Below are positions 1,592 to 52,280 of a stretch of DNA of 64,000 nucleotides, one piece after another. Source of the stretch: Dastarcus helophoroides (Eukaryota; Arthropoda; Insecta; Coleoptera; Bothrideridae); the NCBI GenBank assembly GCA_028583605.1, contig CM053335.1, positions 15,622,553 to 15,686,552 of the forward strand. The letters are read 5' to 3'. How positions within the stretch are numbered: position 1 is the first letter of the stretch; every line of letters begins with the position of its first letter. Below the pieces are notes generated by a model that did no database searches, had not been told where the DNA came from, and was given only the letters and a program-made list of their open reading frames with translations. Both the position numbers and the translations under genes were made by a program.

Positions 1592-1663
1592 TTCCGATAC
1601 CGGGAATCGAACCCGAGCCTCCTGGGTGAAAGCCAGGTATCCTAGCCACTAGACCATATCGGA
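1592..1663 (-). tRNA. tRNA-Glu (anticodon UUC)
   Basis: This is a complete minus-strand tRNA of 72 nt including the discriminator A. The acceptor arms TCCGATA/TATCGGA pair over 7 bp. The D arm reads GTCTAGTGGCTAGGAT, the anticodon arm CCTGG-CTTTCAC-CCAGG gives anticodon TTC, and the T arm contains GGTTCGAATCC. The internal promoter boxes coincide with the D arm and T arm. No intron is present and no CCA is encoded, as in eukaryotic nuclear genes. A T-run follows at once. The overlapping minus-strand open frame across 1539-1754 is a coincidence. Confidence 0.97.
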
Positions 1664-2287: not shown

Positions 2288-2295
2288 AAAAAAAA
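2288..2295 (-). terminator. Pol III terminator of tRNA-Glu(CUC) copy 1
   Basis: An eight-T run on the minus strand starts five bases beyond the mature 3' end of the tRNA. Confidence 0.75.
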
Positions 2296-2299
2296 CATG

Positions 2300-2371
2300 T
2301 TCCGATACCGGGAATCGAACCCGAGCCTCCTGGGTGAGAGCCAGGTATCCTAGCCACTAGACCATATCGGA
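2300..2371 (-). tRNA. tRNA-Glu (anticodon CUC), copy 1
   Basis: This is a minus-strand tRNA of 72 nt including the discriminator A. It matches the gene at 1592-1663 except in the anticodon loop, CTCTCAC, which gives anticodon CTC and reads GAG. The 7-bp acceptor stem, D arm, T arm and cloverleaf pairing are intact, and a T8 terminator follows. Its 5' flank (2381-2420 on the + strand) is shared with the next copy, so these two CUC genes look like a tandem duplication. Confidence 0.97.
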
Positions 2372-2380
2372 TATCTTACG

Positions 2381-2420
2381 AAGTTTCAAGCGTACAGAGC
2401 CGGATCGAAAAATATTTTCA
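2381..2420 (-). repeat. Duplicated 5' flank of the tRNA-Glu(CUC) genes, copy 1
   Basis: About 40 bp just upstream (minus-strand sense) of tRNA copy 1 match 2824-2863 upstream of copy 2. Both share 'aagtttcaag' and 'gccggatcgaaaa', with about six differences. This is a relic of the gene duplication and may also hold upstream Pol III promoter elements. Confidence 0.75.
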
Positions 2421-2731
2421 CGTCGAATTGTTTGAAATTTTACTTTTAAACAAGAAGCGACATTCAACCTATGAAAAATTGGCCCAGGTTTCATTATAAA
2501 TTGCAATAAAACCTTTTTACACGTTATTATTTTTACCAAATATTGATAAAAGTTAGGAACTAGTTTCTTACAGATAGCTGAAATTTGGTGTTGGACTGTG
2601 ATCTACGAACTTCAAAATGTAGATTTTGTTGAGATATACGTTGGGAGTAGCAGATCAAAGCAGTATTACAAAGGTAACCGACAATTTATTAACGACAGAT
2701 AAAAAAAAACGAGCGAACATAATTCTCCAAG

Positions 2732-2738
2732 AAAAAAA
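2732..2738 (-). terminator. Pol III terminator of tRNA-Glu(CUC) copy 2
   Basis: A seven-T run on the minus strand begins five bases after the mature tRNA end. Confidence 0.75.
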
Positions 2739-2742
2739 GTTT

Positions 2743-2814
2743 TTCCGATACCGGGAATCGAACCCGAGCCTCCTGGGTGAGAGCCAGGTATCCTAGCCAC
2801 TAGACCATATCGGA
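2743..2814 (-). tRNA. tRNA-Glu (anticodon CUC), copy 2
   Basis: The sequence is identical to the copy at 2300-2371 over the mature tRNA, with anticodon loop CTCTCAC, intact acceptor, D, anticodon and T arms, discriminator A, and a T7 terminator. It lies 371 bp from the other CUC gene and has the related 5' flank at 2824-2863. Confidence 0.97.
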
Positions 2815-21149: not shown

Positions 21150-22220
21150 TCAAAGCAAGTGTTCGAAATTACTGCCCCCTGCAGCAATACATTGCTCGGC
21201 TCGTCTTCTAAGGGAACTCCTTACTCTTTCGCAAATGCCTGGTGTATTGTGAATCTGGTTGAACCCATTTTCAATTCGTTCACGAAGATCATTGATATTG
21301 TCAACTGGTGTGGAGTAGACGATCTGCTTTAGATGTCCCCATAAGTAGAAATCGAGTGGGTTGAGGTCAGGAGACCTAGCTGGCTATGGTATCGGACCTC
21401 CTCGACCTATCCATCGTTGATGATAGTTGTTATTCAAAAATTCCCTAGCAACTGCACTAAAATGGGCAGGTGCCCCATCGTGCATTATCCACATTCGCTG
21501 TCTTGTTATGAGTGGAACATTTTCAAGTAACACGGGTAACTCTGTTTGCAAAAAATGTCTATATGATGCTCCTGTTAACCTATGAGGTAAAAAAAACGGT
21601 CCAATTATAGAGTCCCCTATTATTCCTCCCCAAATGTTAAGTGAAAAATGTTGCTGATGTCTCGACTGAATAACTGCATTGGGATTTTCAACTTGCCACT
21701 GATGCATGTTGTGAAAGTTAAGTATCCCGTTTCTGGTAAAACCCGCTTCGTCCGTAAATAATATGAGCGATGGAAAGTTCTCATTTTCAGCGATCTTATG
21801 CAATAGCCAGTTGCAAAATTCTATTCTTGGAGGATAATCAGCAGCAAGTAACCCTTGCACTCTTTGAAAATGATAGGGGTAAAATTGGTAAAATTTCAAA
21901 ATTCGCCAGATAGTTACGTGATTTACTCCTTCGGCTAAAGCAAGTTGTCTAGTGCTGACACATGGATCTTCTTCAACTCGCTGAAGCACACGCTCCTCTA
22001 AATTAGCAACTTCTGCGTTTGGCCTTCCAACACGTTCGCCTTTGAAAACAAAATTTCCTGTTTCACATAAACGAGCATGAATTTTCTGGAACAATTTTTC
22101 TCCTAGTAGGTGTCTATTAGGAAAACGTTCAGCATAAAGCCGTCTTGCTTCAGCACGATTACAATTTGCAAGCCCGTACATTAAATGCATATCGGCCATT
22201 TCTTGATTTGAATAGTCCAT
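21150..22220 (-). pseudogene. DD41D Tc1/mariner-type transposase with one in-frame stop
   Basis: The reading frame from the ATG at 22220 to the TGA at 21150-21152 is 356 codons, interrupted only at codon 279 by TAG (21384-21386). The usual residue in related proteins is Trp (GPIPWP...), so TGG to TAG is a likely cause. Residues 1-57 form the helix-turn-helix seen in insect elements (QEMADMHLMYG, RRLYAERFPNRHLL). A second helix-turn-helix follows at about 72-110. The catalytic acids are D157 (LFTDEAGF), D248 (WIMHDGAPAH) and, beyond the stop, D290 (RSPDLNPLDF), with 41 residues between the last two. Without read-through the product lacks the third catalytic acid and should be inactive. The enzyme would cut and rejoin its own terminal repeats at TA sites. 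Confidence 0.93.
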
Positions 22221-22437
22221 TTTATCAAAATAATGAAAAGTTAAAAAACTACTACACTTACTATTGACAACAAAAACTGCTAAAGTTTACAGCTTACGAC
22301 CAAATTTTATCAGTGACACAACGTCAATCTCTGGCAGATATTGTCAAGTACAATTGTTTTCTTTACGATCAGTTTGCATGACCAACTTATTTTTTCTTAT
22401 ACAAATTAGTTAGAATTTCGAAGACGGGATAGGATTA

Positions 22438-26270: not shown

Positions 26271-26308
26271 TAAGTTTGATGGAACGGACTGGTCCTTGGT
26301 TATCTTCA

Positions 26309-26684
26309 AAAATTGAAACACAGAACTTGTCCCCTGAAACCAAGAAAAATTAAAAAACACAACAAGGTTGCTCTAACGCGTTTCGACAGCCAAGCTGTCA
26401 TCTTCAGAGAGAAACTAACATCTAATCTTAAAATTAACCCTTATATACTAAGAATATTCACTTCGTGCGTGATCGGCCGCACCCGAACGCGCATCCAATC
26501 ATACACGTCGTTGTGTCACAATTTCTTATCTATCAACCTTAACTATTTTTAACAGGGATGAATGGCCTAAAGGTCCAGCGCAACCATAAGGTTGTTTCCA
26601 GCCTTATGGATGGCTAAGCTCTCACATGCATTTAACATATAATTCTTATTAACTACTCTTAACAATTTAATATCATTATCTATC
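26309..26684 (-). repeat. Left inverted arm of the PLE
   Basis: Reverse complement of 27891-28270, 376 bp against 380 bp; the difference is a 4-bp deletion near 26587. Near-identical otherwise. Outside it lie another ~38 bp of PLE end (26271-26308, containing 'ggactggtccttggttatc') that the right side lacks but the dispersed copies share. Confidence 0.9.
26368..26415 (-). ncRNA. Hammerhead-type ribozyme motif, PLE left arm
   Basis: On the minus strand: CTCT (stem I), CTGAAGA (conserved CUGANGA box), an unpaired T, GACAGC-TTG-GCTGTC (6-bp stem II), GAAA, a very short stem III CGCG, then T before the predicted cut, and AGAG closing stem I. Hammerheads with minimal stem III are a known feature of Penelope-like ends. 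The extra T before stem II departs from the standard core, so activity is not assured. Confidence 0.65.
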
Positions 26685-26687
26685 AAA

Positions 26688-27470
26688 ATGGCTAGAAAAA
26701 GAAAAAAAAAAAAAAAAAAAAAAGAATTCAGCAAATTAGAATTCCAGCAACTCAGTTTGTCAGTCAAAAATTCCCAAGAGTTTGTACAGAAAATTCAGAA
26801 TGAAGAGTTGTTGGAAGGTGAAATGCTGGTTTCTTTTGATGTTTCTTCCCTCTTTCCCAGTGTACCCATACCTCAAACTTTATTATACCTTCGAGATCTG
26901 TTGGAATCTAATAACCTTTCAGGCAAAATTATTGACGAATATATTTCATTAACGAAAATATGTATGGATCAAAATTATTTCCAAATTAATAACGAATTTT
27001 ATGAACAACTTGAGAGAGCAGCCATGGGAAATCCTTTGTCACCTTTCATGGCTGAGCTCTTCATGGGTGTTTTTGAAAGTCGTCTTAAAAATGAATGTAG
27101 TTTGTTTCCTAGGGTATGGATTAGATATGTAGATGATATTTTTGCTATTTTCGACACAAAAAATCAAAATTTAGATAATTTCATTGATGTTTTAAATTCA
27201 CGTTTTCCAACAGTTAAATTCACTGTAGAATTAGAGAAAGAAGCCGCTTTACCATTTTTAGACATTTTAGTTATTAGGAATAAAAATAGATTAGAATTTG
27301 ATGTATATAGGAAAGATTCCAGTACCTTCCGCTATATAACTTCCGATTCTAACCATTGCATACAGCACAAAATGGCAAGCTTCAACTTCCTTGCCCATCG
27401 CCTTCTGAGTCTTCCTCTTAGTAGGGAAAGATTCAGAAAGGAGTTAAAAGACAATAAAACATATAGCTGA
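26688..27470 (+). pseudogene. PLE reverse transcriptase, 5'-truncated and frameshifted
   Basis: The first 12 residues (MARKRKKKKKKK) come from the A-rich junction and are not native. From about residue 13 the sequence is a Penelope-type reverse transcriptase. It shows motif A with the metal-binding aspartate D51 (VSFDVSSLFPSVP), then MGNPLSP at 113-119, the catalytic YVDD at 147-150, and LPFLDILV at 188-195. The fingers region that normally precedes motif A is missing. The frame ends at 27470, while the same protein continues in the +1 frame from about 27448 (TIKHIAEVNGF), which places a one-base shift between about 27445 and 27470. The enzyme would copy the element RNA at a nicked target. 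Confidence 0.9.
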
Positions 27471-28053
27471 AGTTAATGGATTCGATCCAAATATTATTTA
27501 TAAAATTATTAATAAGAAAAAATTTAAATGTGAATTGGTGAATACTACAACTTTCCGAGCTGATGAAAACAAAAACTTTAAATTCGTCTCACTTCCATTT
27601 GAACCCTCGCTCACGCAGGGTTTGGGTGGAATTTTACGAAATCAGGGTTTTCGGGTTATTTATACTTCTAATGGAAAATTAAATTCGCTTTTAGGTAGTT
27701 TAAAGGATAAAGTAGAGCAAACAGATAAGTCTGGTATTTACCAAATTTCATGTAAGGATTGTCCTCAAAAGTATGTTGGACAAACTAGACGATCTCTTAA
27801 AATCCGACTCAAAGAACATTTGGCTCATTTGAGGTACGGAAGAACTGAGAAGTCAAGTGTGGCTCGACATGCTTTTGAATTAGATCATAGGATAGATAAT
27901 GATATTAAATTGTTAAGAGTAGTTAATAAGAATTATATGTTAAATGCATGTGAGAGCTTAGCCATCCATAAGGCTGGAAACAACCTTATGAATGGTTGCG
28001 CTGGACCTTTAGGCCATTCATCCCTGTTAAAAATAGTTAAGGTTGATAGATAA
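27448..28053 (+). pseudogene. PLE C-terminal part: linker and GIY-YIG endonuclease
   Basis: This is the continuation of the reverse transcriptase after a one-base frameshift; the first ATG-like entry in this frame is not a real start. Counting from the GTG/ATG region at 27535, the GIY-YIG core is SGIYQISC (67-69 GIY) and KYVGQTRRSLKIRLKEH (80-82 YVG), with the basic/His positions R85-H95. The metal-binding Glu is in CESLAIHK (E140). A CxxC pair (CKDC, 73-76) recalls the zinc-finger-like element of Penelope endonucleases. The last ~55 codons lie inside the inverted arm, so their antisense is duplicated at 26520-26684. The role is target DNA nicking for insertion. Confidence 0.92.
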
Positions 28054-28270
28054 GAAATTGTGACACAACGACGTGTATGATTGGATGCGCGTTCGGGTGC
28101 GGCCGATCACGCACGAAGTGAATATTCTTAGTATATAAGGGTTAATTTTAAGATTAGATGTTAGTTTCTCTCTGAAGATGACAGCTTGGCTGTCGAAACG
28201 CGTTAGAGCAACCTTGTTGTGTTTTTTAATTTTTCTTGGTTTCAGGGGACAAGTTCTGTGTTTCAATTTT
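27891..28270 (+). repeat. Right inverted arm of the PLE
   Basis: Inverted partner of 26309-26684. It holds the end of the endonuclease frame, a non-coding 3' part, a hammerhead-type motif, and 'tttcttggtttcaggggac', which resembles a splice acceptor. Confidence 0.9.
28165..28212 (+). ncRNA. Hammerhead-type ribozyme motif, PLE right arm
   Basis: CTCT at 28168-28171 pairs with AGAG at 28205-28208 (stem I). CTGAAGA lies at 28172-28178, T28179 is unpaired, and GACAGC/GCTGTC at 28180-28185 and 28189-28194 form stem II with loop TTG. GAAA lies at 28195-28198. Stem III is only A28198-T28203 and C28199-G28202. The predicted cut is after T28204. The same core is repeated in every dispersed copy listed below, which argues that it is a real conserved part of the element. 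Confidence 0.65.
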
Positions 28271-28790: not shown

Positions 28791-29303
28791 ATCTGAGAAC
28801 AGTCGAATGATTCATGACGTATTGCTCCTAAGAATTTTCATCGAGTTCACAGCCTGTACTGTATAAAAATGTTGAAATTTTGAAAGAAAATATAAATTAA
28901 AAAAAACGAAAATTTCAAAAGAGGAAACTTAAAGCAGTGAGAATTAAAAAAAAACGAAAATTTAGGAAAAGTGGAAAATTTAAAAAAAGTTTACATTAAA
29001 AAAACAAAATGTTCAAATTTTGCAAAATAGTTGGAAATTTCTAAAAATTAGTCGAAATTTTAACAAAATATCGAGATTTGAAAAAACCGAAATTTTCGAA
29101 TAGTCGAAATTTTAAAGAAATCTTCAGAAAAATTCGGAAGTCTGTAAAAAAAATCAAAATTTCCAAACAAAAAATCAAAATAATTAACATTTTCAAAAAA
29201 AAGCTGAGGACATTTTGAAGAAAATTGAAACTTCCAGAAAAAAAAGCTGAAATTTGAGAAAGCTGAGAAGTTTTCGAAAAATTTATAATTTTGCAAAATA
29301 GTT

Positions 29304-29445
29304 TGATACAACGGACTGGTCCTTGGTTATCTTCAAAAATTGAAACACAGAACTTGTCCCCTAAAACCAAGAAAAATTAAAAAACACAACAAAGGTTGCT
29401 CTAACGCGTTTCGACAGCCAAGCTGTCATCTTCAGAGAGAAACTA
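29304..29445 (-). mobile_element. Solo PLE end with hammerhead motif
   Basis: About 142 bp match the outer part of the PLE left arm (26281-26415), in the same orientation. It contains 'ggactggtccttggttatc', the splice-acceptor-like stretch and the hammerhead core, and stops exactly at the 5' side of the ribozyme (gagagaaac). A 5-bp 'tagtt' occurs at both borders (29299-29303, 29444-29448). The satellite unit is interrupted and resumes, so this is a real insertion. Confidence 0.88.
29397..29442 (-). ncRNA. Hammerhead-type ribozyme motif, solo PLE end
   Basis: The minus strand has CTCT, CTGAAGA, T, GACAGC-TTG-GCTGTC, GAAA, CGCGTT, AGAG: identical in core and stem II to the motifs of the full element. 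The insertion boundary coincides with the start of the motif. Confidence 0.62.
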
Positions 29446-36400: not shown

Positions 36401-38755
36401 GACTACGATTAAGTAAACTACGTGGGCTATCAGCAATTAAAATTTGAAAGAAAATTTCTGCCAATGTCCGGCTGCCTTGGACAGATTCGATAACAGGCAT
36501 CCAACCCCACCGAAAGGCTTCTATCACCGTTCAGGATTAGTCCTTGTCAGAGAAACTACTTAGTGACTGATCGGTCCTTTAGATGCACAAATCAATCTAG
36601 AAAGTCAATCATTCAATGGTCAAGCAAATCACGTCGAAGACAAAATTCTGCAAAGCATCTAAAGACAGTAAATAAACACAGAACACGTTAGTTTAGTATG
36701 TCAACCATGCACGAATCAATCCGCAAAGACCCTCATAAGCCACGACATGGCTAAACATCTTCCCAAAATGCTTCCAAAACTAACCAACGAGACTTGAAAC
36801 TAGGCAAGACTGGTTTTCTGTCGATTTACGGGAAGTTATCGCCATGAAAACCTAAGTAGTTGATTCACAAAACCTATCTGCTTCTTTCTGTCAATGTCCG
36901 GCAAGTGCTACACGCTACAAAATTGAGATAATATTGTGGTTTCTTGGGTTAATTAGAGTAAAATTAAAACGACTCCAAGAAGCTGTAAAACTTCCGAAGG
37001 TGCCCCCATATGCTTTGTCGATTTTCACAAAGTTGCCAGGCTTCCAGTAAATGTTTTCTTCAGTATCTAGTCAGCGATACTGCTAATGACAAAATGACTC
37101 TTAGGGTCAACTATTAACTTAAAAATCCAAGTAGCTGGACCATAAAATGTGTGTATGTTTTTCTGTCAACGTCCGGCAAGTGCTATACGCTACAAAATTG
37201 AGATAATATTGTGGTTTCTTGGGTTAATTAGAGTAAAATTAAAACGACTCCAAGAAGCTGCAAAACTTCCGAAGGTGTCCCCATACGCTTTGTCGATTTT
37301 CACAAAGTTGCCAGGCTTCCAGCAAATGTTTTCTTCAGTATCTAGTCAGCGATACTGCTAATGACAAAATGACTCTTAGGGTCAACTATTAACTTAAAAA
37401 TCCAAGTAGCTGGACCATAAAATGTGTGTATGTTTTTCTGTCAATGTCCGGCAAGTGCTATACGCTACAAAATTGAGATAATATTGTGGTTTCTTGGGTT
37501 AATTAGAGTAAAATTAAAACGACTCCAAGAAGCTGTAAAACTTCCGAAGGTGTCCCCATACGCTTTGTCGATTTTCACTAAGTTGGTAGGTTTCTAGCAA
37601 ATGTTTTATTCAGTATCTGGTCAGCGATACTGCTAATCATAAAATGACCTTTAGGGTCAACTATTAACTTAAAAACCTAAGTATTTGGACCATAAAATGT
37701 GTGTATGTTTTTCTGTGAATGTCCGGCAAGTGCTATACGCTACAAAATTGAGATAATGTTGTGATTTCTTGGGTTAATTAGAGTAAAATTAAAACGACTC
37801 CAAGAAGCTGCAAAACTTCCGAAGGTGTCCCCATACGCTTTGTCGATATTCACTAAGTTACTAGGTTTCTAGTAAATGTTTTCTTCAGAATCTAGTCAGT
37901 GATACTGCTAATCATAAAATGACCTTTAGGGTCAACTATTAACTTAAAAACCCAAGTTGTTGGACCATAAAATGTGTGTATGTTATTCTGTCAATGTCCG
38001 GCAAGTGCTATACGCTACAAAATTGAGATAATATTGTGGTATCTCTGGTCAACCAGACTGAATTTGAAACGGTTCGAAGAAGCTGTCCGAAGACTGGTTT
38101 TCTGTCGATTTGCGGGAAGTTATCACCATGAAAACCTAAGTAGTTGATTCACAAAACCTCTCTGCTTCTTTCTGTCAGTGTCCGGCAAGTGCTAGGCGCT
38201 ACAAAATTGAGATAATATCTCTGTTTCTTGGGTTAATTAGAGTAAAATTAAAACGACTCCAAGAAGCTGCAAAACTTCCGAAGGTGTCCCCATACGCTTT
38301 GTCGATTTTCACTAAGTTACTAGGTTTCTAGTAAATGTTTTCTTCAGAATCTAGTCAGCGATACTGCTAATCATAAAATGACCTTTAGGGTCAACTATTA
38401 ACTTAAAAACTCAAGTAGTTGGACCATAAAATGTGTGTATGTTTTTCTGCCAATGTCCGACAAGTGCTACACGCTGCAAAATTGAGATAATATTGTGGTT
38501 TCTTGGGTTAATTAGAGTAAAATTAAAACGACTCCAAGAAGCTGTAAAACTTCCGAAGGTGTCCCCATACGCTTTGTCGCTTTTCACCAAGTTACTAGGT
38601 TTCTAGCAAATGTTTTCTTCAGAATCTAGTCAGCGATACTGCTAATCATAAAACGACCTTTAGGGTCAACTAATAACTTAAAAACCTAAGCTGTTGGACC
38701 ATAAAATGTGTGTATGTTTTTCTGTCAATGTCCGGCAAGCGCTTTAGGCGGCAAA

Positions 38756-39597
38756 ATTGAGAAAAAATTATGGTATCTCTGGTCAACCAGACTGAATTTG
38801 AAACGGTTCGAAGGAGCTGTCCGAAGACTGGTTTTCTGTCGATTTACGGGAAGTTATCACCATGAAAACCTAAGTAGTTGATTCACAAAACCTATCTGCT
38901 TCTTTATGTCAATGTCCGGCAAGTGCTAAACGCTACAAAATTGAGATAATATTGTGGGTTCTTGGGTTAATTAGAGTAAAATTAAAACGACTCCAAGAAG
39001 CGGCAAAACTTCCGAAGGTGTGCCCATACGCTTTGTCGATTTTCACTAAACTACTAGGTTTCTAGCAAATGTTTTCTTCAGTATCGAGTCAGCGATACTG
39101 CTAATCATAAAATGACCTTTAGGGTCAACTATTAACTTAAAAATCCATGTTGTTGGACCATAAAATGTGTGTATGAATTGAGAAAAAATTATGGTATCTC
39201 TGGTCAACCAGACTGAATTTGAAACGGTTCGAAGGAGCTGTCCGAAGACTGGTTTTCTGTCGATTTACGGGAAGTTATCACCATGAAAACCTAAGTAGTT
39301 GATTCACAAAACCTATTCTGCTTCTTTCTGTCAATGTCCGGCAAGTGCTAAACGCTACAAAATTGAGATAATATTGTGGGTTCTTGGGTTAATTAGAGTA
39401 AAATTAAAACGACTCCAAGAAGCGGCAAAACTTCCGAAGGTGTGCCCATACGCTTTGTCGATTTTCACTAAACTACTAGGTTTCTAGCAAATGTTTTCTT
39501 CAGTATCGAGTCAGCGATACTGCTAATCATAAAATGACCTTTAGGGTCAACTATTAACTTAAAAATCCATGTTGTTGGACCATAAAATGTGTGTATG
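38756..39597 (+). repeat. Recent 421-bp tandem duplication in array A
   Basis: 38756-39176 and 39177-39597 are nearly identical (differences such as ctttatgtc against ctttctgtc). The join at 39176/39177 falls inside the unit (gtgtatg|aattgag), unlike the regular unit joins. Confidence 0.88.
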
Positions 39598-39974
39598 TTT
39601 TTCTGTCAATGTCCGGCAAGCGCTTTATGCGGCAAAATTGAGAAAAAATTATGGTATCTCTGATCAACTAGACTGAATTTAAAACGGTTTGAAGGAGCTG
39701 TCCGAAGATATCTCATATGTCCCGTCGATTTTTAATAAGGTACTAGATTAGCAGGAAATGCTACTCTAGAATCTAGTCGGAGATGCTACGCCCCACATTC
39801 TGTCCTTTTATGGCCTCTTGTTAACTGGTAACCTAAATAGTTGAGCCCAAAACCTTTCTGTGTCTTTCTGTCAATGTCCGGTAAGCATCAAGGGCTGCAA
39901 AATTCAAAGGAAAATGTGGTGTAACTGTAAAAGAATACTGCATCTTTATCATTTATCTAAGAATAAATAAATTT

Positions 39975-40090
39975 AGTTATCACATAGTCATATTTCAAAA
40001 ATTGTTTCAGAATATTGTCAACTTTCATTACTAAAAATTTAGTTAACTCCAAACTGGGTCGCAGAAATGTTAAATGAAATTAACCATTAT
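39975..40090 (+). repeat. Diverged copy of dispersed repeat X
   Basis: It shares 'atcacatagtcatatttcaa', 'ttgtcaac' and 'ccaaactgggtcgcagaaat' with the X copies at 15.8-18.6 kb, so this short element is not confined to the TTAATCGA region. Confidence 0.65.
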
Positions 40091-41319
40091 CTAAATTATA
40101 AGGAACAAAGAAACAGCTTTAACTATGAGGGTGCACAAAACACATGCTTCTTGCTGAAAAAAAATTGTAAAACACAAGAACGCGGTTTCTGCGAATGTCC
40201 GGCTTTTTCTGTAGTTACGACAGCCTCCCATTTCTGTTATATCGAATTTATTTAATAAATGGCCGCACATCCTTTTTCCATCCAGAATGACCTAATTCGC
40301 AGATTTTAAATCTTCAACTTTTTAGTAGAGCGTTAAACGATAGAATAAGTAAGATTTCTGTAACGATTCTTAAGAAACTGCAACATGAGTAGAACAAGCT
40401 GTCACTTAACGATAGCTAACGTATTGGGTGAAATCAATTCTTGCGTAGTGATCCTAATCGAAGCTACAGCTTGCCGGAAATTGACAGAATGAATTAAGCA
40501 TTTGTAGACATCTCGTCATTCGATACTGTATCTGCGTTAGTAGCAGTACCCTAATGCTTATGCACCTCCAAGAGAAGAGCATTTCGGACAGAATCGATAT
40601 AAAAAGAAGTTTTCTCTAAAGCACTGAACTAAACACTGTGGCTTGTGATTAAGTCCAAAGAAGGTTTCACCCCTTTACCAAATCGGCAATTAAAGTATCG
40701 ATTCGAATCTCAATGCAGATGACGTCGATGCATCTTTTGCTAATCATTTTAGATTAGTACGCTTGAAAATGCCAGTTCTGCTGGCGAAATACGTATCGCG
40801 TAATTATTTATTTAATTGCCGATGTGGTAAAGGGGTGAAACATTCTTTGGGATAAAAAGAAGTTTTGTTCAACCAAGTCTTTAAACGCTAGCTTGCCGTA
40901 AATCAACAGAAGGTGGTTTCTTCTAACCTCGCTGGGACGTTCTTCAGTTTCTAAATTAAATCGAGTGGCCGAACGAATGACCAAAGACAGCTCAATCAGG
41001 GACCGCAATGGAACCAGAAGAGAAACCTAAAGACCTAATTTTAGACAACCCATCGCAAATCGACAATCCAAAATAAACCTTGTTCAATCAAGATGTCTTA
41101 CCCCTTAAAATTGCCAAAAACTGATGACTGATTTATACAAATTGCTTACGTAAAAAACGATTGAATCAACTCTTCACATTTAGTGATTTTAAGGTGAGTT
41201 GATGTCTTGAAAACGCGGGTGCTTTAGTCTCAAAACGTGTTTTATTTTTTCTGCGAATATCCGGCAAGCGTTATTTGCTGCAAAAATTCAAAACAAACTC
41301 TCAAAACGAAACGACTAGA

Positions 41320-41443
41320 GACAAAATATCGCAGCTTCTGATCAGACCTAAAATGAAACAACTTCCAAGTCGTTTCATTTTGAAATGAAACGACTTAGAA
41401 GTTGTTTCATTTTAGGTCTGATTAGAAGCTGCCATATTTTGTG
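41320..41443. repeat. Long near-perfect palindrome (~60-bp arms, 2-nt spacer)
   Basis: Left arm 41320-41380 pairs with right arm 41383-41443 around 'cgtttcattt TG aaatgaaacg', with few mismatches. It would extrude as a cruciform or, if transcribed, fold into a ~60-bp hairpin. It is made from 275-bp satellite sequence. Confidence 0.9.
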
Positions 41444-41970
41444 TTTTCAGCCACCAAGCTACTAATTTATTGTAAATGATGCCCATTGGTCATAAAACGA
41501 TCCACATTTTGTCCTTTTATGTCACTGTTAGCTTTAAAATGTAAGTAATTGGGCCACAAAGCATGTCGCGTTCTTTCTGTCGATGTCCGGCAAGCGATAC
41601 ACGCTGCAATATCAAGAAAAAGTGCGGTGTTTTGGCTTACTTAGACTAAGGTTAAAACAAATTCGAGAAGGTTTAAAGCTTTCGAAAATATTCCATCCGT
41701 TTTGTCGATTTTCGCTAAATTTTCACGAAGTTACGAGCTTGTTATCAAATTTCTAGTTACTCTAGTATCTAGTCAGTGACATTGTTATAATTAAACGATC
41801 CGAATTTTGTTCTTTCACATCAGCTGTTAATTTAAAACGTAAGCTATTGGGCCAAAAACCGAGTCCGCTTCTTTCTGTCAATGTCCGGCAAGTGATATAC
41901 GTTACAAAATTGGGAAAAAATTTCGGTATTTTGGCTTGACTAGATGGAACTTTAAATAACTCCAAGTAGT

Positions 41971-42198
41971 TGATATACAAATCTTGTTCCCTGAAACCGA
42001 GGAAGATTAAAAAACACAACAGAGGTTGCTCTAATGCGTTTCGATAGCCAAGCTTCAGTATCTCTCTGAAGATGATGGCTTGACTATCAAAACGCGTTAG
42101 AGCTCTGTTGTGTTTTTTAATCTTTCTTGTTTCAGGGGACAATATTTGCATTTCAATTTTTGAAGATAACCAAGGACCAGTCCGTTCGACCAAAATTT
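41971..42198. mobile_element. Foldback of two opposed PLE ends (inverted copy)
   Basis: Two PLE ends meet head to head at about 42060. The outer end reaches 'ccaaggaccagtccgttcg' at 42170-42190. Its flank ('aaaatttaaagtaaaag' then 'catcttcggaagtttt') is the reverse complement of the left flank of the foldbacks at 49.3 and 51.4 kb. It is therefore the same insertion, copied in inverted orientation. Both hammerhead cores are damaged here: the + one has AAAA in place of GAAA, and the - one has lost half of stem II. Confidence 0.85.
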
Positions 42199-42640
42199 AA
42201 AGTAAAAGATTTAAACATCTTCGGAAGTTTTAGGTTCCTTTGAGTTGTTTTAATTTTGGTCTGATTAACCCGAGAAACCTTTTTTTTCCCTAAATTTTGT
42301 AACGTATCGCATCTGCCGGACACCCACAGAAAGAAGCAAATAGTGGATCAACTTCTTGGATTTTCAAATCAACAACCCATCCTAAAAGGAGACAATTTGT
42401 TTTATGATTACCAAATACTAAACATCATATTTGCTAATAACCTAGAAAACTGGGTCAAAATCGATGGAAAGTATGGAGCTTTTTCGAAAGATTAATAGCC
42501 CTTTAGAACGCTTACAATTCAGATTAGTTAAGTCGAAATACTGCAAATTTTTTCTCAAATTTGCAACATATATCGCTTGCCGGACATTGACAGAAAGACG
42601 CCGCCGCAGCTAAAGTAGGACACAATTCATTCTGTGAATA
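42199..42640 (-). repeat. Inverted 275-bp satellite units
   Basis: Reverse complement of the unit type seen at 49130-49330: 'ctgccggacacccacagaaa' here matches 'tttctgtgggtgtccggcag' there. A second inverted box, 'cttgccggacattgacagaa', lies at 42573. Confidence 0.85.
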
Positions 42641-44395
42641 CCGTTGAACCAAAAAAAAAACTCCAAGTAGTTATAAAACCTTTCAAAATGTTCCATACGT
42701 TCTGTTGATTTTCACAAAAATACTAGGTTATTAGCAAATCTTGCCTAGTATCTACGCGGCAACGCCGGTCATCATAAAACGGCTTATATTCTATCCTCTG
42801 AGGCTCAACTGTTACCTTGACAACCTAAGTTAATATAAAAATCGCGTCTTTCTGTCAATATCCGGCAAGCGATATACGTTGCAAATTTGAGAAGAAATTT
42901 GCGGTATTTCGGATTAACTAAACCGAATTTAAAACGACTCTTAGGAGGTATTAATTTTCCGAAAATATTCTATCGCTTTTTACACAATTACTAGGTTATT
43001 AGCAAATGTTGTGTAATGTCTAGTCAACAAATCTGTTCATCATAAAACGACCATATTGTGTCTTTTTAGGGTTGACTGTTAACTTAAAAACCTAAGTAGT
43101 TGAGCCAAAAAACGCATCTGCTTGTTTCTGCCAATGTCCGGCAGGCGATATTCTATACAAAATTCAAAAGAAATTGCGGTATTTCGCTTTAATTACAGTG
43201 GAATTAAAATGGCTTTAAGGAGCTATAAAATGTACGAAGATGTCCCATGCGTTCTGTCGATTTGCTCCAAGTTACTAGTTTATTAACCTATGTCGTCTCT
43301 AGCAGGTGGTTGACGACGCTGGTAATCATAAAGCGAAGTATGTTTAGTCGTTTTAGTTAAGTTAGTTTGGATGTCCCATGCGTTCTGCCGATTTGCTCCA
43401 AGTTACTAGTTTATTAACCTATGTCATCTTTAGCAGGTGGTTGACGACGCTGGTAATCATAAAGCGACCCACCTTTAGTCGTTTTAATTAAGTTAGTTTA
43501 GTCGTTTAGTTGAAGACTTGACTACTTTAGCAAAAAATCGTCTATCAGTGTCCGCTACCGCTGTCAATATACGCTGCAAAGTTAAGAAAAATTGTGATAT
43601 CTCGAATTAACCAGAGCACATGAGCAAATGCTATCTCTAGCATCCAGTCAGTGATGTTGTTAATCATAAAATGACGTATTTTGTCTTTTTAGGGTCGGCT
43701 GATAATTCAAAAACTTGAGTAGATGATGAAGGGTGGTTTTCTGTTGATTTACAGCAAATTGTCACCCTGAAAACCTAAGTAGTTTATTCACAAAACCTGT
43801 CTTATTTTTTCTGTCAATGTCCGGCAAGTGCTATACGGCATAAAATTGAGAAAAAATTGTAGTATCTCGAGTTAATTAGACTGCAATTGAAACGACGTTG
43901 AGGATCTGAAGGTGTCCCATGCTTTGTGGCGATTTTCGTCAAGTTATTAGGTTACTGCTTCCAATATCTAGTCAGCGAAGCTGCTAATCATAAAATGATC
44001 CACAGCATCTCCTTTTAGGGTCAACTATTAACTTGAATACCTAAGTAATTGGGGAATAAAACCTATGTATTTTTTTCTGTCAATGTCCGGCAAGCGCTAT
44101 ATGGGTCAAAATTGAGAAAAATGATGACATCTTTGGTTCGACGGTTCGAAGGAGCTGTCTGAAGATATCTTGTATGTCCTGTCGATTTTCAATAAAGTGC
44201 TAAATTAGCCGGAAATATTGTCTCTGGTGTCTGGTCAAAGATGCCGGTAATCGTAAAACGACCCACATTCTGTCATTTTAGGGTCCGCTGTTACCTAGAA
44301 AACCTAAGTGGTTTCGTCCCAAAGCCTTAATGTGTCTTTCTGTCAATGTCCGGCAAGTACCAAACGATGCAAGATTCAAAGAGAAATATGATATA

Positions 44396-46254
44396 AATGT
44401 ATAATTGAGTCAGATATTTGCTAGAATTCACCTCGGATGTCAATGGAATGCAAAGGAAGAGATAATTATAAAAATTACATCGTGTAATCGATACTTTAGA
44501 ATAACGGTCGTTCTGCTATCTGCAACTTTTGCCTTTCAGTTTGATATCAATGATAAACTTTCTTTGTTTGGCTTCAACACTGATAACTCACTTTCAAGTT
44601 CTGCTTATAGCGAAGCTACAATTGCTGTGGTGTTCTACAAAAATATTATGGACTTCCCCTAGTTATGTTGGGGACATTTTGGATAGCGTATACAATACAA
44701 TATTTTTTATACAGTACGTTGTAATATCACCGCGCCGTTTGGTTCATAATAGTCAGAAAGTAAACAAAGTAATTGATAAATAGTTCATTTTTAAACCTAA
44801 ATATTTTGCTTCCTTGTTGTCATTCGTTCGAACGTACTACCTAGTACTTATCCTTTAACCTTGCAGTGGAAATTTCTATATAATAATTACTAATTACGAA
44901 TAAACCCAAATAACTCAGTATAAACGAAAATGTTTTGATTTTGTCTGTTTACAGTAAAAAAGGACATAAGTATTTAGATCTTACAGTTTGTTTTATCTCG
45001 CCACGTGTAATAAGTTTGTTTTTGTACTTATATAGCCGAGATAAATTTTATAAATATGTCTTTGTACCGAATTAGATACAAAATTATTTTTATTTCATTC
45101 TTAATACTCCTGAATTTTACTAAAACGACAAACAGTTTATCTGGATGTATGTAGTTAAAATTTCATTACTGACGTACGTAAGTTGTGACTAATGATAAAG
45201 AAAAATTGTCGTTATTGGTATCCGATATTATCTATTTAATTAGCTAGTTGTGGAAAACTATAAATTGAAAAGTATTCTTTATAATCACTTCTAGCATTAA
45301 ATCTGTTCATGGTAATAATATTGTCGTCTTGTTTAATGAACCTACTGGACTAGTCTGAATAATTACTTAAGTATCGTCTGCGGTCACTCTACGACTCCGT
45401 GGTTATATCAAATCGTAATTTGGTAAGAAATTTCCAAATTTTAATAAACACAAACAACTTTTGAATCATTAAAAAAAAATGATTCCTCTTGTTCAAGGTG
45501 ATTACTCATAACGCCCAAACTGGTATAATCAGTTGTTTATTCTTACCAAAAAGTGATCATCTTCTTTAGAACTGTTACAAATATCTTTTTTTATCCTATG
45601 TTGGATTTTCTTCCACTGCAAGATGGTATTCTTCTACATTTTTAAGATTTTCGTAGTTGGCTTTTCATAACTTCGTAGCCGACTACGAAAGTCTTACAGA
45701 ATATGGAAGAATGCCATCTCGTGGCAGAATTTTTCGCAGTCGATTACCAAAAATTGGGTTTCCCCAAACAGCGTTTTCCCATTAAATGTTTAAACCTAGT
45801 AAAAATATTGAAGAAGCAAAAGATAATCTAGGGTACATTCAACGGTCGACGTGACTTGACATCGCTTAAATTATAATTCAAGCTCCTTACTATTGTAACG
45901 TAAGCATTGTCTAGCTTCTAAATTTCGAATTAGGCCACTTATTGAACGGATATAATAGAAATAAGAGCCTGCCGGAAGCTCTGCAGAATTAGCCGGACAC
46001 GCGCAGAATCCGTGTTTTTGTGGCTTTTTAAGATCGTAATTGTGTTTTTTTTTTGTACATTTACTCTAAGTAAAATATGGGTATCGTTCTTTGAGATCTA
46101 AACTCTGTTCTAAAGAAATCTGCGCTCAGCATCCCTACTTCTTTAGCAAAAAATGAGGCGGTCAAATTTTAATAGACACACTCGCGGCTTGACATTTAGG
46201 AATTGGCCTTAATGCCACACGCATAATTTCGTGGATAAAATTCTATTATTAAGA
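44396..46254. other. Unique gap between the two satellite arrays
   Basis: About 1.9 kb without satellite units. Open frames at 44405-44662 and 44529-44783 overlap in different frames and resemble nothing I know; I do not call them genes. A foldback hairpin is entered separately. Confidence 0.45.
45612..45727. repeat. Foldback hairpin, ~50-bp arms
   Basis: Arm 45612-45661 pairs with 45678-45727 with about 85% complementarity around a 16-nt loop. The arms contain 'agatggtattcttctac' and 'gaagaatgccatctc'. It could be a small foldback transposon or an expressed hairpin RNA; nothing in the sequence separates the two. Confidence 0.75.
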
Positions 46255-46432
46255 AACATAATCCAGGATTATATGGTGTTTTCAGCGAGCCACATACATT
46301 ATTTGATTGTTATTACTCGTTATTTGTAATTTCACGTTACTTTTATCTTCCCCTTCAGCATTTATTAAATAATTCAAGCCGCCAGTCTGTGTAGACGTAT
46401 TGTAAAATCATCAACCGGCGTTTTGAAAATAT
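46255..46432 (+). repeat. Direct repeat flanking array B, left copy
   Basis: About 180 bp matching 52095-52280 (shared 'ataatccaggattat', 'tatttgattgtt', 'gcatttattaaataatt', 'tcatcaac'), with scattered substitutions. The pair brackets array B. Confidence 0.85.
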
Positions 46433-49331
46433 TGGACCAAAAAAACGCGTTTTTTTTTCTGTCAGTGTCCGGCCAGCGGTATACGCTACAAAGTTGAGAA
46501 GAAATTGTGGTATCTCCTGATTAGCTAAACTGAGATTGAAACGACATTAAGTAGCTGTAAAACTTCCAAAGGTTTTCCACACATTCACTCGATTTGCATC
46601 AAGTTACTAGATTATATAGATATTAGATAGATTGCTAGCAAATACTGCCTGTAGCATCTAGTCAGCTAAGATGCTTATTATAAAATGACTCACATTTTGT
46701 CCTTTTAGGGTTAGTTGTTACCTTAAAAACCTAAATAGTTAATCCAAAAATCCTATCTGCTTCTTTCTGTCAATATCCGGCAGGCAATATAAGTTGCAAA
46801 TTTGAGAAGAAATTTGCGGTACTTCGACTTAACCAATTTGAATTTTAAAAGACTCTCTATTCCAAAAATGTTCCATACTTTCCGTCGATTTTCACATAGT
46901 TTTCTAGGTGATTAGCAAATATGATTTCTAGTATTTGGTAATCATGAGACGACCCACATTACGGCCTCTTAGGAGGGGCTGTTAACTCGAAAACCCAAGT
47001 ACTTGATCCACAAAACCTGCTTCTTTCTGTCGATGTCCGACAAGTGTTATACGTTACAAAATTGAGGAAAGAAGATGGTTTCTTGGGTTAATTACACCAA
47101 AATTAAAACAATTTGAAGCAGCTTTAAACTTCCGAGGATGTTCAGATCAGCCATTACCTTAATAACGTAAGCAGTTGAGCCAAGAATCGATTCCGTTTTT
47201 TTCTGTCAATGTCCGGCAAGCGATATATGCTACAAAATTGAGCAGAAATTGTGATATCTCAGATTAGCTAAACCAGAATTGAAACTACATTAAGCAACTG
47301 TAAACCTTTCGAAGGGGACCCACACATTCACTCGATTTGCGTCAATTTACTAGGTGGCTAGCAAATTTTGTCTCTAGTATTTAGTCAGCTGCGCTAGTCA
47401 TCATAAAACCGCTCACATGTTGTTCTTTTAGGGTCAGTTCTAGCTTAAAAACCTAAGTAGTTAATCCAAAAATGTTATCTGCTTCTTTCTGTCAATATCC
47501 GGCAAGTGATATATGTTGCAAATTTGAGAAGAAGTTTGCGGTACTTCGACTTAACTAATTTGAATTGTAAAAGATTGTCTCTTCCGAAAATGTTCCATAC
47601 TTTCCGTCGATTTTCACACAGTTTTCTAAGTGATTAGCAAATATGATTTCTAGTATCTGGTAATGATAAAAAGACCCACATTACGTCCTTTTACGAGGGG
47701 CTGTTAATTCGAAAACCTAAGTACTTGATCCACAAATCCTGCTTCTTTCTGTCGATGTCCGACAAATGCTATACAAAATTGAGGAAAAAAGATGGTTTCT
47801 CGAGTTAATTATACCAAAATTAAAACAATTTGAAGCAGCTTTAAACTTCCGAGGATGTTCAGATCAGCCATTACCTTAATAACGTAAGCAGTTGAGCCAA
47901 GAATCGATTCCGTGTTTTTCTGTCAATGTCCGGCAAGCGATATATGCTACAAAATTGAGAAGAAATTGTGCTATCTCGGATTAACTAAACTAAAATTGAC
48001 ACGACATTAATTAGCTGTAAAACTTCCGAAGGTATCCTCACACATTCACTCGATTTGCGTGCGTTTACTGGGTGGCTAGCAAATTTCGTCTCTAGTATTT
48101 AGTCAGCTGCGCTAGTCATCATAAAGCGGCTCACATGTTGTTCTTTTAGGTCAGTTCTAGCTTAAAAACCTAAGTAGTTAATCCAAAAATGTTATCTGCT
48201 TCTTTCTGTCAATATCCGGCAAGTGATATACGTTGCAAATTTGAGAAAAAAATTGCAGTTTTTCGACTTAACTAATCTGAATTTTAAACGACTCTAAGGG
48301 ACTATTAATCTTCCGAAAAAGCTCCATCACCTTCCCTCGATTTTGACACAGTTTATTAGGTTATTAGCAAATATGATGTTTAGTATCTGGTATCATAAAA
48401 AGAATTGTGTCCTCTTGGGATGGGTTGTTAATTTGAAAATGCAAGGAGTTGGTTCACTATTTGCTTCTTTCTGTCGGTGTCCGGCAGATGCTATTCGTTA
48501 CAAAATTGAGGAAAAAAGATGGCTTAGGGAACAAATGGTTTCTCGGGTTAATCAGATGAAAATTAAAACAACTCGAAGGAGCTTAAAACTTCCGAAGATA
48601 TTTCGATCAGCTTCTTTAAAAATAAACAGTTGAACCAGAAATCGATTCTGCTTTTAACTGTCAATATCCGGCAAGCGATATTTACTGCAAAATTGAGAAG
48701 AAATTGCTGTATTTTGGCTTAACTAGACTGAAATTACAAAGACTTTAAAGAGCAATATAACGTCCGAAGATGCCTCATGCGTTCTGTCGATTTTCCTTAA
48801 GGTGTTAGGTTAGTAGTAAAGGTTTACCTATAGTGGATAGTTGGCGATGCTAGTAATCCTAAAATGACCCATATTTATTCATTTAGAGTCAACTTAAAAA
48901 CCTACTTTAGCCGCGACGGCGTCTTTCTGTCAATATCCGGCAAGCGATATACGTTGCAAATTTGAGAAAAAATTTGCAGTATTTCGACTTAACTAATCTG
49001 AATTGTAAGCGATTCTAAAGGGCTATTAATCTTCCAAAAAAGCTGCATACCTTCCGTAGATTTTAACACAGTTTACTAGGTTATTAGCAAATATGATTAT
49101 TAGTATCTGGTAATCATAAAACAAATTGTGTATTTTAAGGATGGGTTGCTGATTTGAAAATCCATGGAGTTGATCCACTATTTGCTTCTTTCTGTGGGTG
49201 TCCGGCAGATGCGATACGTTACAAAATTTAGGGAAAAAATGGTTTCTCGGGTTAATCAGACCAAAATTAAAACAACTCGAAGGAGCTTAAAACTTCCGAA
49301 GATGTTTAGGTCTTCCACTTTAAATTTTGGT

Positions 49332-49561
49332 GGAATGGACTGGTCCTTGGTTATGTTCAAAAATTGAAATTCAAATCTTGTCCCCGGGAACCAAGAAAGA
49401 TTAAAAACACAACAGAGGTTGCTCTAACGCGTTTCGATAGCCAAGCTATTATCTTCAGAGAGATACTGAAGATGATAGCTTGGCTATCGAAACACGTTAG
49501 AGCGTTGTGTTGTGTTTTTTAATTTGTCTTGGTTTCAGGGGACAAGATTTGAATTTCAAGC
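49332..49561. mobile_element. PLE-end foldback, copy 1 in array B
   Basis: It runs from 'ggactggtccttggttat' through 'ttgtccccgggaaccaag', the minus-strand hammerhead core (49422-49463), then the opposed + strand copy (49466-49503) and 'tttcaggggacaagatttg'. The two halves pair over roughly 95 bp. Flanks are satellite ('actttaaattttggt' before, 'ctactttaaaaataaac' after). Confidence 0.88.
49420..49466 (-). ncRNA. Hammerhead-type motif, foldback copy 1
   Basis: The minus strand has CTCT, CTGAAGA, TAATAGC-TTG-GCTATC, GAAA, CGCGTT, AGAG. The core boxes are intact; the outermost stem II pair is A with C. The opposed + strand copy keeps CTGAAGA, a perfect stem II and GAAA but lacks a stem I partner. 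Confidence 0.5.
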
Positions 49562-50442
49562 TACTTTAAAAATAAACAGTTGAACCAGAAATCGATTCTG
49601 TTTTTTTCTGTCAATGTCCGGCAAGCGATATATACTACAAAATTAAGAAGAAATTGCTATATTTTGGCTTAACTAGACTGAAATTACAAAGACTTTAAAG
49701 AGCAATATAACGTCCGAAGATGCCTCATGCATTCTGCTGATTTTTTTAAAGGTGTTAGTTTAGTAGTAAAGGTTACCTATAGTGGATAGTTGGCGATGCT
49801 AGTAATCCTAAAATGACCCATATTTATTCATTTTGAGTCAACTTAAAAACCTACTTTAGCCGCGACGGCGTCTTTCTGTCAATATCCGGCAAGCGATATA
49901 CGTTGCAAATTTGAGAAAAAATTTGCAGTATTTCGACTTAACTAATCTGAATTGTAAGCGATTCTAAAGGGCTATTAATCTTCCAAAAAAGCTGCATACC
50001 TTCCGTAGATTTTAACACAGTTTACTAGGTTATTAGCAAATATGATTATTAGTATCTGGTAATCATAAAACAAATTGTGTATTTTAAGGATGGGTTGTTG
50101 ATTTGAAAACCCAAGTAGTTGATCCACTGTTTGCTTCTTTCTGTCGGTGTCCGGCAGATGCTATACGTTACAAAATTTAGGGAAAAAATGGTTTCTCGGG
50201 TTAATCAGACCAAAATTAAAACAACTCGAAGGAGCTTAAAACTTCCGAAGATGAAGATCAGCTACTTTAAAAACAAACAGTTGAACCAGAAATCGATTCT
50301 ATTTTTTTCTGTCAATATCCGGCAAGCGATATATACTGCAAAATTGAGAAGCAATTGCTGCATTCTGGCTTAACTAGGCTGAAATTACAACGACTTTAAA
50401 GGGCAATATAACATCCGAAGATCTTCTATTTTAAATTTTGGT

Positions 50443-50671
50443 GGAATGGGCTGGTCCTTGGTTATCTTCAAAAATTGAAATTCAAATCTTGTCCTCCGGA
50501 ACCAAGAAAGATTAAAAACACAACAGAGGTTGCTCTAACGCGTTTCGATAGCCAAGCTATTATCTTCAGAGAGATACTGAAGATGATAGCTTGGCTATCG
50601 AAACACGTTAGAGCGTTGTGTTGTGTTTTGTAATTTGTCTTGGTTTCAGGGGACAAGATTTGAATTTCAAG
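50443..50671. mobile_element. PLE-end foldback, copy 2 in array B
   Basis: Same structure and nearly the same sequence as 49332-49561, 1,111 bp further on. The same left junction ('ttaaattttggtggaatgg') shows amplification of one insertion and not independent insertion. Confidence 0.88.
50531..50577 (-). ncRNA. Hammerhead-type motif, foldback copy 2
   Basis: Core boxes and stems as in copy 1 (CTGAAGA, stem II with TTG loop, GAAA, CGCGTT, AGAG). Confidence 0.5.
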
Positions 50672-51391
50672 CTTCTTTAAAAACAAACAGTTGAACCAGA
50701 AATCGATTCTGCTTTTTTCTGTCAATGTCCGGCAACCGATATATAATGCAAAATTGAGAAGAAATCGCTGTATTTTGGCTTAACTAGATTGAAATTACAA
50801 CGACTTTAAGGAGCAATATAACGTCCGAAGATGCCTCATGCATTCTGTCGATTTTCCTTAAGGTGTTAGGTTAGTAGTAAAGGTTACCTATAGTGGATAG
50901 TTGGCAATGTTAGTAATCCTAAAATGACCCATACTTATTCATTTAGAGTCAACTGAAATACCTACTTTAGCCGCGACGGCGTCTTTCTGTCAATATCCGA
51001 CAAGCGATATACATGGCAAATTTGAGAAAAAATTTGCAGTATTTCGACTTATTTAATCTGAATTGTAAGCGACTCTAAAGAGTTATTAATTTTCCGAAAA
51101 AGCTCCATACTTTCCGTTGATTTTGACACAGTTTATTAGGTGATTAGTAAATGTGATGTTTAGTATCTGGTAATCATAAAACGAATTGTGTCCTTTTAGG
51201 ATGGGTTGTTAATTTGAAAATCCAAGAAGTTGGTCCACTATTTGCTTCTTTCTGTGGGTGTCCGGCAGATGCAATACGTTACAAAATTTAGGGAAAAAAT
51301 GGTTTCTCGGGTTAATCAGACCAAAATTAAAACAACTCGAAGGAGCTTAAAACTTCCGAAGATGTTTAGGTCTTCCACTTTAAATTTTGGT

Positions 51392-51618
51392 GGAATGGAC
51401 TGGTCCTTGGTTATGTTCAAAAATTGAAATTCAAATCTTGTCCCCGGGAACCAAGAAAGATTAAAAACACAACAGAGGTTGCTCTAACGCGTTTCGATAG
51501 CCAAGTTATTATCTTCAGAGAGATACTGAAGATGATAGCTTGGCTATCGAAACACGTTAGAGCGTTGTGTTGTGTTTTTTAATTTGTCTTGGTTTCAGGG
51601 GACAAGATTTGTATTTAA
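51392..51618. mobile_element. PLE-end foldback, copy 3 in array B
   Basis: Third copy with the same left junction, 949 bp after copy 2. Its minus-strand hammerhead (51482-51523) has a G-to-A change in stem II (AATAAC against GCTATC), which should weaken it. Confidence 0.88.
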
Positions 51619-52094
51619 AGCTACTTTAAAAACAAATAGTTGAACCAGAAATCGATTCTGCTTTTTTCTGTCAATGTCCGGCAAGCGATATATATTGCAA
51701 AATTGAGAAGAAATTGCTGTATTTTGGCCTAATTAAACTGAAATTACAACGACTTTAAGGAGGAATAAAACGTCCGAAAATGCCTCGTACGTTCTATCGA
51801 TTTTCATTAAGGCACTAGATTAGTAATCAATGTTGCCTGTAGTGGATGGTTAGCGATGCTAGTAGTCATAAAATGGCCTCTATTTATTCATTTCAGTCAA
51901 ATATTAACTTAAACACCCACTTTACCCACAACAGCGTTTTTCTGACAATGTCCGGCAAGCGATATATGCTACAAAAATTAAGAATAAATTGTGGTTTTTC
52001 GGTTTAATCAAACTGTAATTGAAACGGCTCTAAGGAGGTGTAAAACTTTTGAAGTTGTCCCATGCGTTTTGTCAATAATTCTAATATTCAGAAA

Positions 52095-52280
52095 AAAAAA
52101 TGTATAATCCAGGATTATGGGCTGTTTTAAGCGAGCCAGATAAATTATTTGATTGTTGTTACTCGTTATTTGTAATTTCACCTTACTTTATCTTCCCCTC
52201 CAGCATTTATTAAATAATTGAAGTCACCAGTTTAAGTGTACGCACGTTAAAAAGGTCATCAACCCGCGTTTTAAAAGTAT
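52095..52280 (+). repeat. Direct repeat flanking array B, right copy
   Basis: Partner of 46255-46432. Confidence 0.85.

What the first reader, a model, noticed from the sequence alone, without database searches (positions are those of the whole stretch)
41971..51618. A hammerhead-bearing PLE foldback became a component of a satellite higher-order repeat
Foldbacks at 49332, 50443 and 51392 share the same left junction with the 275-bp satellite, and the one at 41971-42198 has the same junction in inverted orientation. One insertion was therefore amplified with the satellite, over at least 9 kb and through an inversion. Ribozyme cores are best kept in copies 1 and 2 (minus strand) and damaged in the inverted copy. 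Transcripts of such an array could be cut into unit-length RNAs, as in other hammerhead satellites. That last step is inference.
Basis: partly seen in the sequence, partly recalled or inferred. Interest (0 to 1): 0.78.

Follow-up and report, generated by a model that had tools for sequence, protein, structure and literature searches.

The report
Decayed Penelope foldback copied within repeats
A short hairpin-shaped leftover of a Penelope-like jumping gene landed in a local block of 275-letter tandem repeats, probably in a beetle genome, and was carried along as the block duplicated; its ribozyme-like motif is broken in all four copies, so this looks like ordinary hitch-hiking rather than a working self-cutting satellite.

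Summary
The foldbacks are real. Each is two ends of a Penelope-like element (PLE) joined back to back; a relative with RT and GIY-YIG domains lies at 26271-28267. Three lie on + (49325-49558, 50436-50669, 51385-51618), one inverted (41970-42195).

Same junction position, shared derived flank letters and a degenerate ~12-bp target duplication favour one insertion copied locally. Copies 1 and 3 match exactly on the left; copy 2 is fused to another monomer type. The inverted copy shares no derived letters inside the foldback with the others, so two insertions are not excluded. A-B-C trimers exist, but 2 of 6 carry the foldback.

Two claims shrink. Scale: in the 539-Mb assembly the monomer and the junction were found only in this window. 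Ribozyme: a PLE-type hammerhead motif passes my descriptor in 20 of 20 young PLE-end loci and 7 of 25 dispersed foldbacks, but 0 of 4 array copies, and the foldback RNA prefers a long hairpin (-124.8 against -74.8 kcal/mol with the hammerhead forced). Ribozyme-cut unit RNAs are unlikely, though untested.

Another array (442 bp x 3.7) carries a PLE end without the ribozyme, so tandem capture does not need it.

The parts
36845..52060 (+). Local array of ~275-bp monomers (tag TGTCCGGCAAG), with other DNA interspersed
   Evidence: 41 plus-strand and 5 minus-strand tag matches with up to 2 mismatches; 275-bp period; all 27 genome matches lie in this window; 14 of 14 candidates scored
46466..51948 (+). 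Higher-order part: six A-B-C monomer trimers (starting 46466, 47210, 47927, 48665, 49615, 50726) plus a lone A monomer at 50316 that carries copy 2
   Evidence: clustering of the first ~140 bp of 39 of 41 plus-strand monomers and 2 of 5 minus-strand ones, threshold 0.22; A falls into two clusters there
49325..49558 (+). Foldback copy 1, in a C-type monomer; minus-strand hammerhead-like motif with C3 at 49458
49317..49324 (+). Left copy of the target duplication of copy 1 (ACTTTAAA exact; about 12 bp with mismatches)
   Evidence: sequence
49559..49570 (+). Right copy of the target duplication of copy 1 (AGCTACTTTAAA)
   Evidence: sequence
50436..50669 (+). Foldback copy 2, joined on its left to an A-type monomer at 'tccgaagat'; minus-strand motif with C3 at 50569
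51385..51618 (+). Foldback copy 3, in a C-type monomer, left junction identical to copy 1; minus-strand motif with C3 at 51518 and further stem II damage
41970..42195 (-). Foldback copy 4, inverted; core broken (AAAA for GAAA in one arm, deletion in the other)
41964..42619 (-). Inverted block (B and C monomers plus foldback), reverse complement of 48901-49566
   Evidence: 89.3% over 670 columns; monomer types
26271..28267 (+). PLE relative: RT and GIY-YIG fragments in two frames, inverted ends of 380 bp (98.9%), 13-bp target duplication, inserted in an 84-bp satellite
28168..28208 (+). PLE-type hammerhead motif (C3 at 28172), overlapping an ATG at 28178
29302..29444 (-). Solo PLE end with the hammerhead motif (C3 at 29435)

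Best explanation
The foldback is a minimal product of a Penelope-like element: two copies of its terminal part (the hammerhead region and the start of the ORF) back to back, one arm with a ~39-bp 'tail', the other without. It belongs to a dispersed family in this genome. One such foldback inserted in a C-type monomer of a local 275-bp array and made a short target duplication. Unequal exchange and conversion then copied that unit to three places (one of them recombined onto an A-type monomer), and an inverted block carries a fourth, older copy. The ribozyme plays no part in this; its motif has decayed in the array. Shown: homology, junctions, repeat structure, single locus in the assembly, broken motifs. 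Inferred: single insertion (about 0.85), exchange/conversion as the copying process, lack of ribozyme activity.
For: Foldback homologous to both ends of the PLE at 26271-28267; PLE has RVT_1 and GIY-YIG. Dispersed family: 37 of 40 scored genome places lie outside this window, of 5263 first-look candidates. 8 of 25 fetched dispersed copies have a target duplication of at least 8 bp at their ends, against a mean of 0.55 and maximum of 5 in 2000 flank swaps. Left junction: 4 genome matches run from satellite into foldback, all in this window; right junction: 3, all here. Derived flank letters: GTGGGT in copies 1, 3, 4 and in 0 of 4 empty C monomers; TCTT for TCAG before the junction in 4 of 4 copies and 0 of 4 empty monomers (copy 2 judged by eye). 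Copies 1 and 3 differ by 3 of 240 in the foldback but 30 of 426 in the flank, and copy 1's flank differs from the empty neighbour by 7 of 404, as expected from exchange or conversion. Copies 1-3 form one clade, support 100/99. Motif: 0 of 4 array copies pass. Tandem capture of a PLE end without the ribozyme also happened on contig C19.
Against: The inverted copy falls outside the clade of copies 1-3 (0% of 200 bootstrap trees join all four) and shares their derived letter in 0 of 17 diagnostic columns; it differs from copy 1 by 13.2% in the foldback but 7.3% in the flank (p 0.017). The target duplication is only 8 bp exact. In copy 1 the two hammerhead regions carry fewer changes than the rest (2 of 84 against 13 of 132, p 0.052), a hint of conservation, though dispersed copies show none (left 75 of 1050, right 45 of 1050, rest 173 of 3300). 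No reads were available to exclude assembly error.
Confidence: 0.83

Rival explanations
1. Hammerhead satellite: array transcripts are cut by the foldback ribozymes into unit-length or circular RNAs, as in pDo500, newt or Schistosoma repeats.
For: Copies 1-3 keep CTGAAGA and GAAA plus four stem I pairs on the minus strand. The motif is intact in young PLE ends (20 of 20 fetched loci).
Against: 0 of 4 array copies pass the descriptor: an A-C mismatch stands where stem II should start in copies 1-3, and copy 4 lacks G12. Right arms lack a stem I partner (0 of 25 dispersed). Hairpin -124.8 against -74.8 kcal/mol with the hammerhead forced (copy 1 minus strand). Only three copies in one orientation, in 2 of 6 trimers plus one lone monomer. 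The PLE hammerhead tested in PMC11167929 needed the PLE protein.
Confidence: 0.03
2. Two insertions at one preferred AT-rich site: copy 4 came from a separate foldback insertion, copies 1-3 from another.
For: No shared derived letters inside the foldback and higher divergence there than in the flank. PLE endonuclease prefers AT-rich sites (PMC11167929, section read).
Against: Same base-pair junction on the left, remains of the same right duplication (CTACTT), and shared derived flank letters. One origin is not rejected (p-AU 0.48).
Confidence: 0.13
3. Assembly artefact: copies are misjoined or collapsed.
For: Tandem and inverted repeats are prone to it; no reads available.
Against: Copies differ (1 and 3 by 7.0% in the flank), and copy 4 by more; the contig is 32.7 Mb long in a 50-contig assembly.
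Confidence: 0.05

Closest known systems
Endonuclease-bearing Penelope-like elements with inverted pLTRs (Adineta vaga Pen families, PMC3846280; Anolis PAc, PMC11167929)
   Same: RT plus GIY-YIG, inverted ends, optional 30-40 bp tail on one end, short target duplications, hammerhead at the ORF start, palindromic inverted junctions (passages seen)
   Different: Here the internal part is gone, leaving two ends only, as a dispersed short family with a shared centre; in the array the hammerhead is broken
Hammerhead satellites / metazoan retrozymes (Dolichopoda pDo500, PMC2837043; newt and others, PMC7229834)
   Same: A hammerhead-related motif recurs in tandemly repeated DNA
   Different: There the hammerhead lies in each repeat, is conserved and is active (abstract and passages seen). 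Here it is a late passenger in 2 of 6 trimers and a lone monomer, broken, inside a long foldback
Transposon insertions amplified inside satellite higher-order repeats (recalled, e.g. centromeric arrays)
   Same: An insertion is multiplied by array turnover
   Different: Small single-locus array; one copy inverted

Membership tests
Penelope-like element (EN+) | RT fused with GIY-YIG endonuclease | tested here: met
   Window relative: RVT_1 2.1e-12 and GIY-YIG 2.8e-06 in two neighbouring frames; RT relatives in beetles up to 64-65% identity, some with both domains. The foldback itself codes for neither.
Penelope-like element (EN+) | Inverted ends, optional 30-40 bp tail, short target duplication | tested here: met
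   Foldback arms 49364-49559 pair at 84% with 39 bp extra on the left; target duplications in 8 of 25 dispersed copies; PLE 13 bp
Hammerhead ribozyme | Core C3 U4 G5 A6 N7 G8 A9, G12 A13 A14, A15.1-U16.1, H17 with paired stems next to the core (criteria in passages of PMC3088659) | tested here: not met
   Array: 0 of 4 copies, even with up to 2 extra nucleotides and 3 stem II pairs. PLE ends fit only with one extra nucleotide before stem II.
Hammerhead ribozyme | Self-cleavage | not testable with these tools
   No RNA data or assay
Hammerhead satellite | Hammerhead in each repeat and more conserved than the rest | tested here: not met
   2 of 6 trimers plus one lone monomer; no conservation in 25 dispersed foldbacks; copy 1 alone shows a weak hint, p 0.052
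Higher-order repeat | Monomer types recur in fixed order | tested here: met
   A-B-C six times at threshold 0.22
Satellite DNA family | Abundant, in many or long arrays | tested here: not met
   27 matches, all in this window; the search skips very common words, and collapsed arrays would be missed

The most novel reading that the evidence does not exclude
The genome holds a self-standing, non-autonomous 'mini-Penelope' family made of two element ends back to back, moved in trans by PLE proteins, and such ends act as seeds that are repeatedly drawn into tandem arrays (this array, and the 442-bp array on C19).
Probability: 0.3. Interest if true: 0.45.

Novelty: new member of a known kind. Interest (0 to 1): 0.25.

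Why it matters
It documents, with junctions, how a PLE end can be carried into a higher-order repeat, one step by which transposons feed tandem DNA, and it warns against reading every hammerhead-like motif in an array as a working ribozyme. The young PLE family with nearly identical copies would be a good subject for testing PLE hammerheads in an insect.

Tried and rejected
Rfam covariance search for hammerheads: no hammerhead family listed in either stretch; the hairpins gave only sub-threshold microRNA-like matches, taken as spurious. Tree of foldbacks to prove single origin: uninformative for the inverted copy. Conservation of the hammerhead in dispersed foldbacks: not seen. Whole-genome copy count of the foldback by its centre pattern: not completed (see below), so I give no copy number. 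Papers with a PLE foldback inside a higher-order repeat: none recognised among the listings; those searches cover open-licence PMC papers only, and the key 2014 paper on PLE hammerheads (PMC4209133) is not held.

Selection effects: the 25 dispersed foldbacks (of 37 outside the window among 40 scored) are the ones most like copy 1, so the shared centre (22 of 25 within 2 edits) is partly a result of the query. The 20 PLE-end loci are the ones most like the window's PLE; some are two ends of one element, and two (L050, L052) are the window's own element. In one search two plus-strand and three minus-strand tag matches were left out. Of three clustering thresholds I report 0.22, where the trimer is clearest.

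Full report
What is there. The window lies at C11:15622553-15686552 of a 539-Mb, 50-contig assembly; RT relatives point to a beetle (Molorchus, Aromia, Tribolium at 59-65% identity), which is an inference. From about 36.8 to 52.1 kb runs a local array of ~275-bp monomers. In its right part, monomers follow the order A-B-C six times. Foldbacks lie at 49325-49558, 50436-50669 and 51385-51618 on +, and inverted at 41970-42195.

What the foldback is. It matches the ends of a PLE at 26271-28267 (88% over 146 columns). That element carries RVT_1 and GIY-YIG, inverted ends of 380 bp at 98.9% and a 13-bp target duplication, and sits in an 84-bp satellite. The foldback is the outermost ~145 bp of one end and ~95 bp of the other, joined; one arm is ~39 bp longer. 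This fits the optional 30-40 bp tail and inverted pLTRs described for PLEs (PMC11167929, main text read; PMC3846280, passages). It is a dispersed family: 37 of 40 scored places lie outside the window, of 5263 first-look candidates. In 25 of those, fetched, 8 have a target duplication of at least 8 bp at their ends, against a mean of 0.55 in flank swaps.

One insertion or several. Copies 1 and 3 have the same left junction to the base; copy 4, inverted, has it with a few substitutions; copy 2 shares only the last ~15-20 bp and continues into an A-type monomer. After each + copy the satellite restarts at AGCTACTTTAAA (AGCTTCTTTAAA in copy 2), which repeats the satellite letters before the foldback: a degenerate target duplication, 8 bp exact in copy 1. 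GTGGGT marks copies 1, 3 and 4 and 0 of 4 empty C monomers; TCTT for TCAG marks 4 of 4 copies and 0 of 4 empty monomers. Against this, copy 4 shares no derived letter within the foldback with copies 1-3 (0 of 17 diagnostic columns), and differs from copy 1 by 30 of 228 there but 31 of 425 in the flank (p 0.017). The tree does not reject one origin (p-AU 0.48), but neither does it for three random dispersed copies put in place of copy 4 (0.40-0.49). I hold one insertion, with an early split of copy 4, at about 0.85.

How it spread. Copies 1 and 3 differ by 3 of 240 in the foldback but 30 of 426 in the flank; copy 1's flank differs by 7 of 404 from its empty neighbour. This mosaic is what unequal exchange or conversion gives (inference). 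Copy 2's left side looks like an in-register exchange between A and C monomers at 'tccgaagat'. The inverted block 41964-42619 matches 48901-49566 at 89%.

How far it spread. A junction query found four matches running from satellite into foldback, all in the window, among 40 scored of 2347 candidates. A right-junction query found three, all here, among 40 scored of 783. The monomer query gave 27 matches, all here. The tool skips very common words, and collapsed arrays would not show. On contig C19 a 442-bp unit repeated 3.7 times (93%) carries a 76-bp PLE end and no CTGANGA...GAAA match in the 9,901 bp fetched: tandem capture without the ribozyme.

The ribozyme. The PLE ends carry CTCT-CTGAAGA-T-GACAGC-TTG-GCTGTC-GAAACGCGTT-AGAG, a hammerhead-like motif with one extra nucleotide before stem II. 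It overlaps an ATG, as reported for the Anolis PLE, whose ORF starts at stem II. The descriptor finds it three times in the window (0.08 expected) and never without the extra nucleotide. It passes in 20 of 20 fetched young PLE-end loci and 7 of 25 dispersed foldbacks, and in 0 of 4 array copies. In stem II, C-G in the PLE is T-A in most foldbacks, a paired change. In array copies 1-3 the G that opens stem II is A; copy 4 has lost G12. On the other strand the arm lacks the stem I partner. Copy 1 minus-strand RNA folds as a long hairpin at -124.8 kcal/mol, against -74.8 with the hammerhead forced; the eight strands range from -104.3 to -137.6. Dispersed foldbacks show no extra conservation of the motif; copy 1 shows a weak hint (2 of 84 against 13 of 132, p 0.052). 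Cleavage into unit RNAs is therefore unlikely (0.03), but no RNA was examined.

Verdict. A real, tidy case of a PLE remnant carried by array turnover; the hammerhead is a passenger and is decayed here. Known kind, low to moderate interest.

Noticed in passing
L049:3923-5542 (G000:C19:56422-58041): 442-bp tandem unit x3.7 (93%), each with a PLE tail end without the hammerhead part: a second tandem capture of a PLE end.
   Followed up: partly
26271-28267: Young PLE family: 42 of 42 listed genome matches (40 of 2656 candidates scored) to its end are 99-100% identical, suggesting recent activity; this copy sits in an 84-bp satellite with a 13-bp target duplication.
   Followed up: partly
41332-41431: Near-perfect ~95-nt hairpin beside the array; matches unrelated microRNA models below their thresholds, probably a small inverted-repeat element.
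   Followed up: no
46260-46420 and 52100-52260: Similar non-monomer stretches flank the higher-order part on both sides (seen by eye).
   Followed up: no
1592-2814 (-): Three tRNA genes close together.
   Followed up: no
21384-22286 (-): 300-aa ORF with a sub-threshold DUF4817 helix-turn-helix match, possibly a transposase.
   Followed up: no
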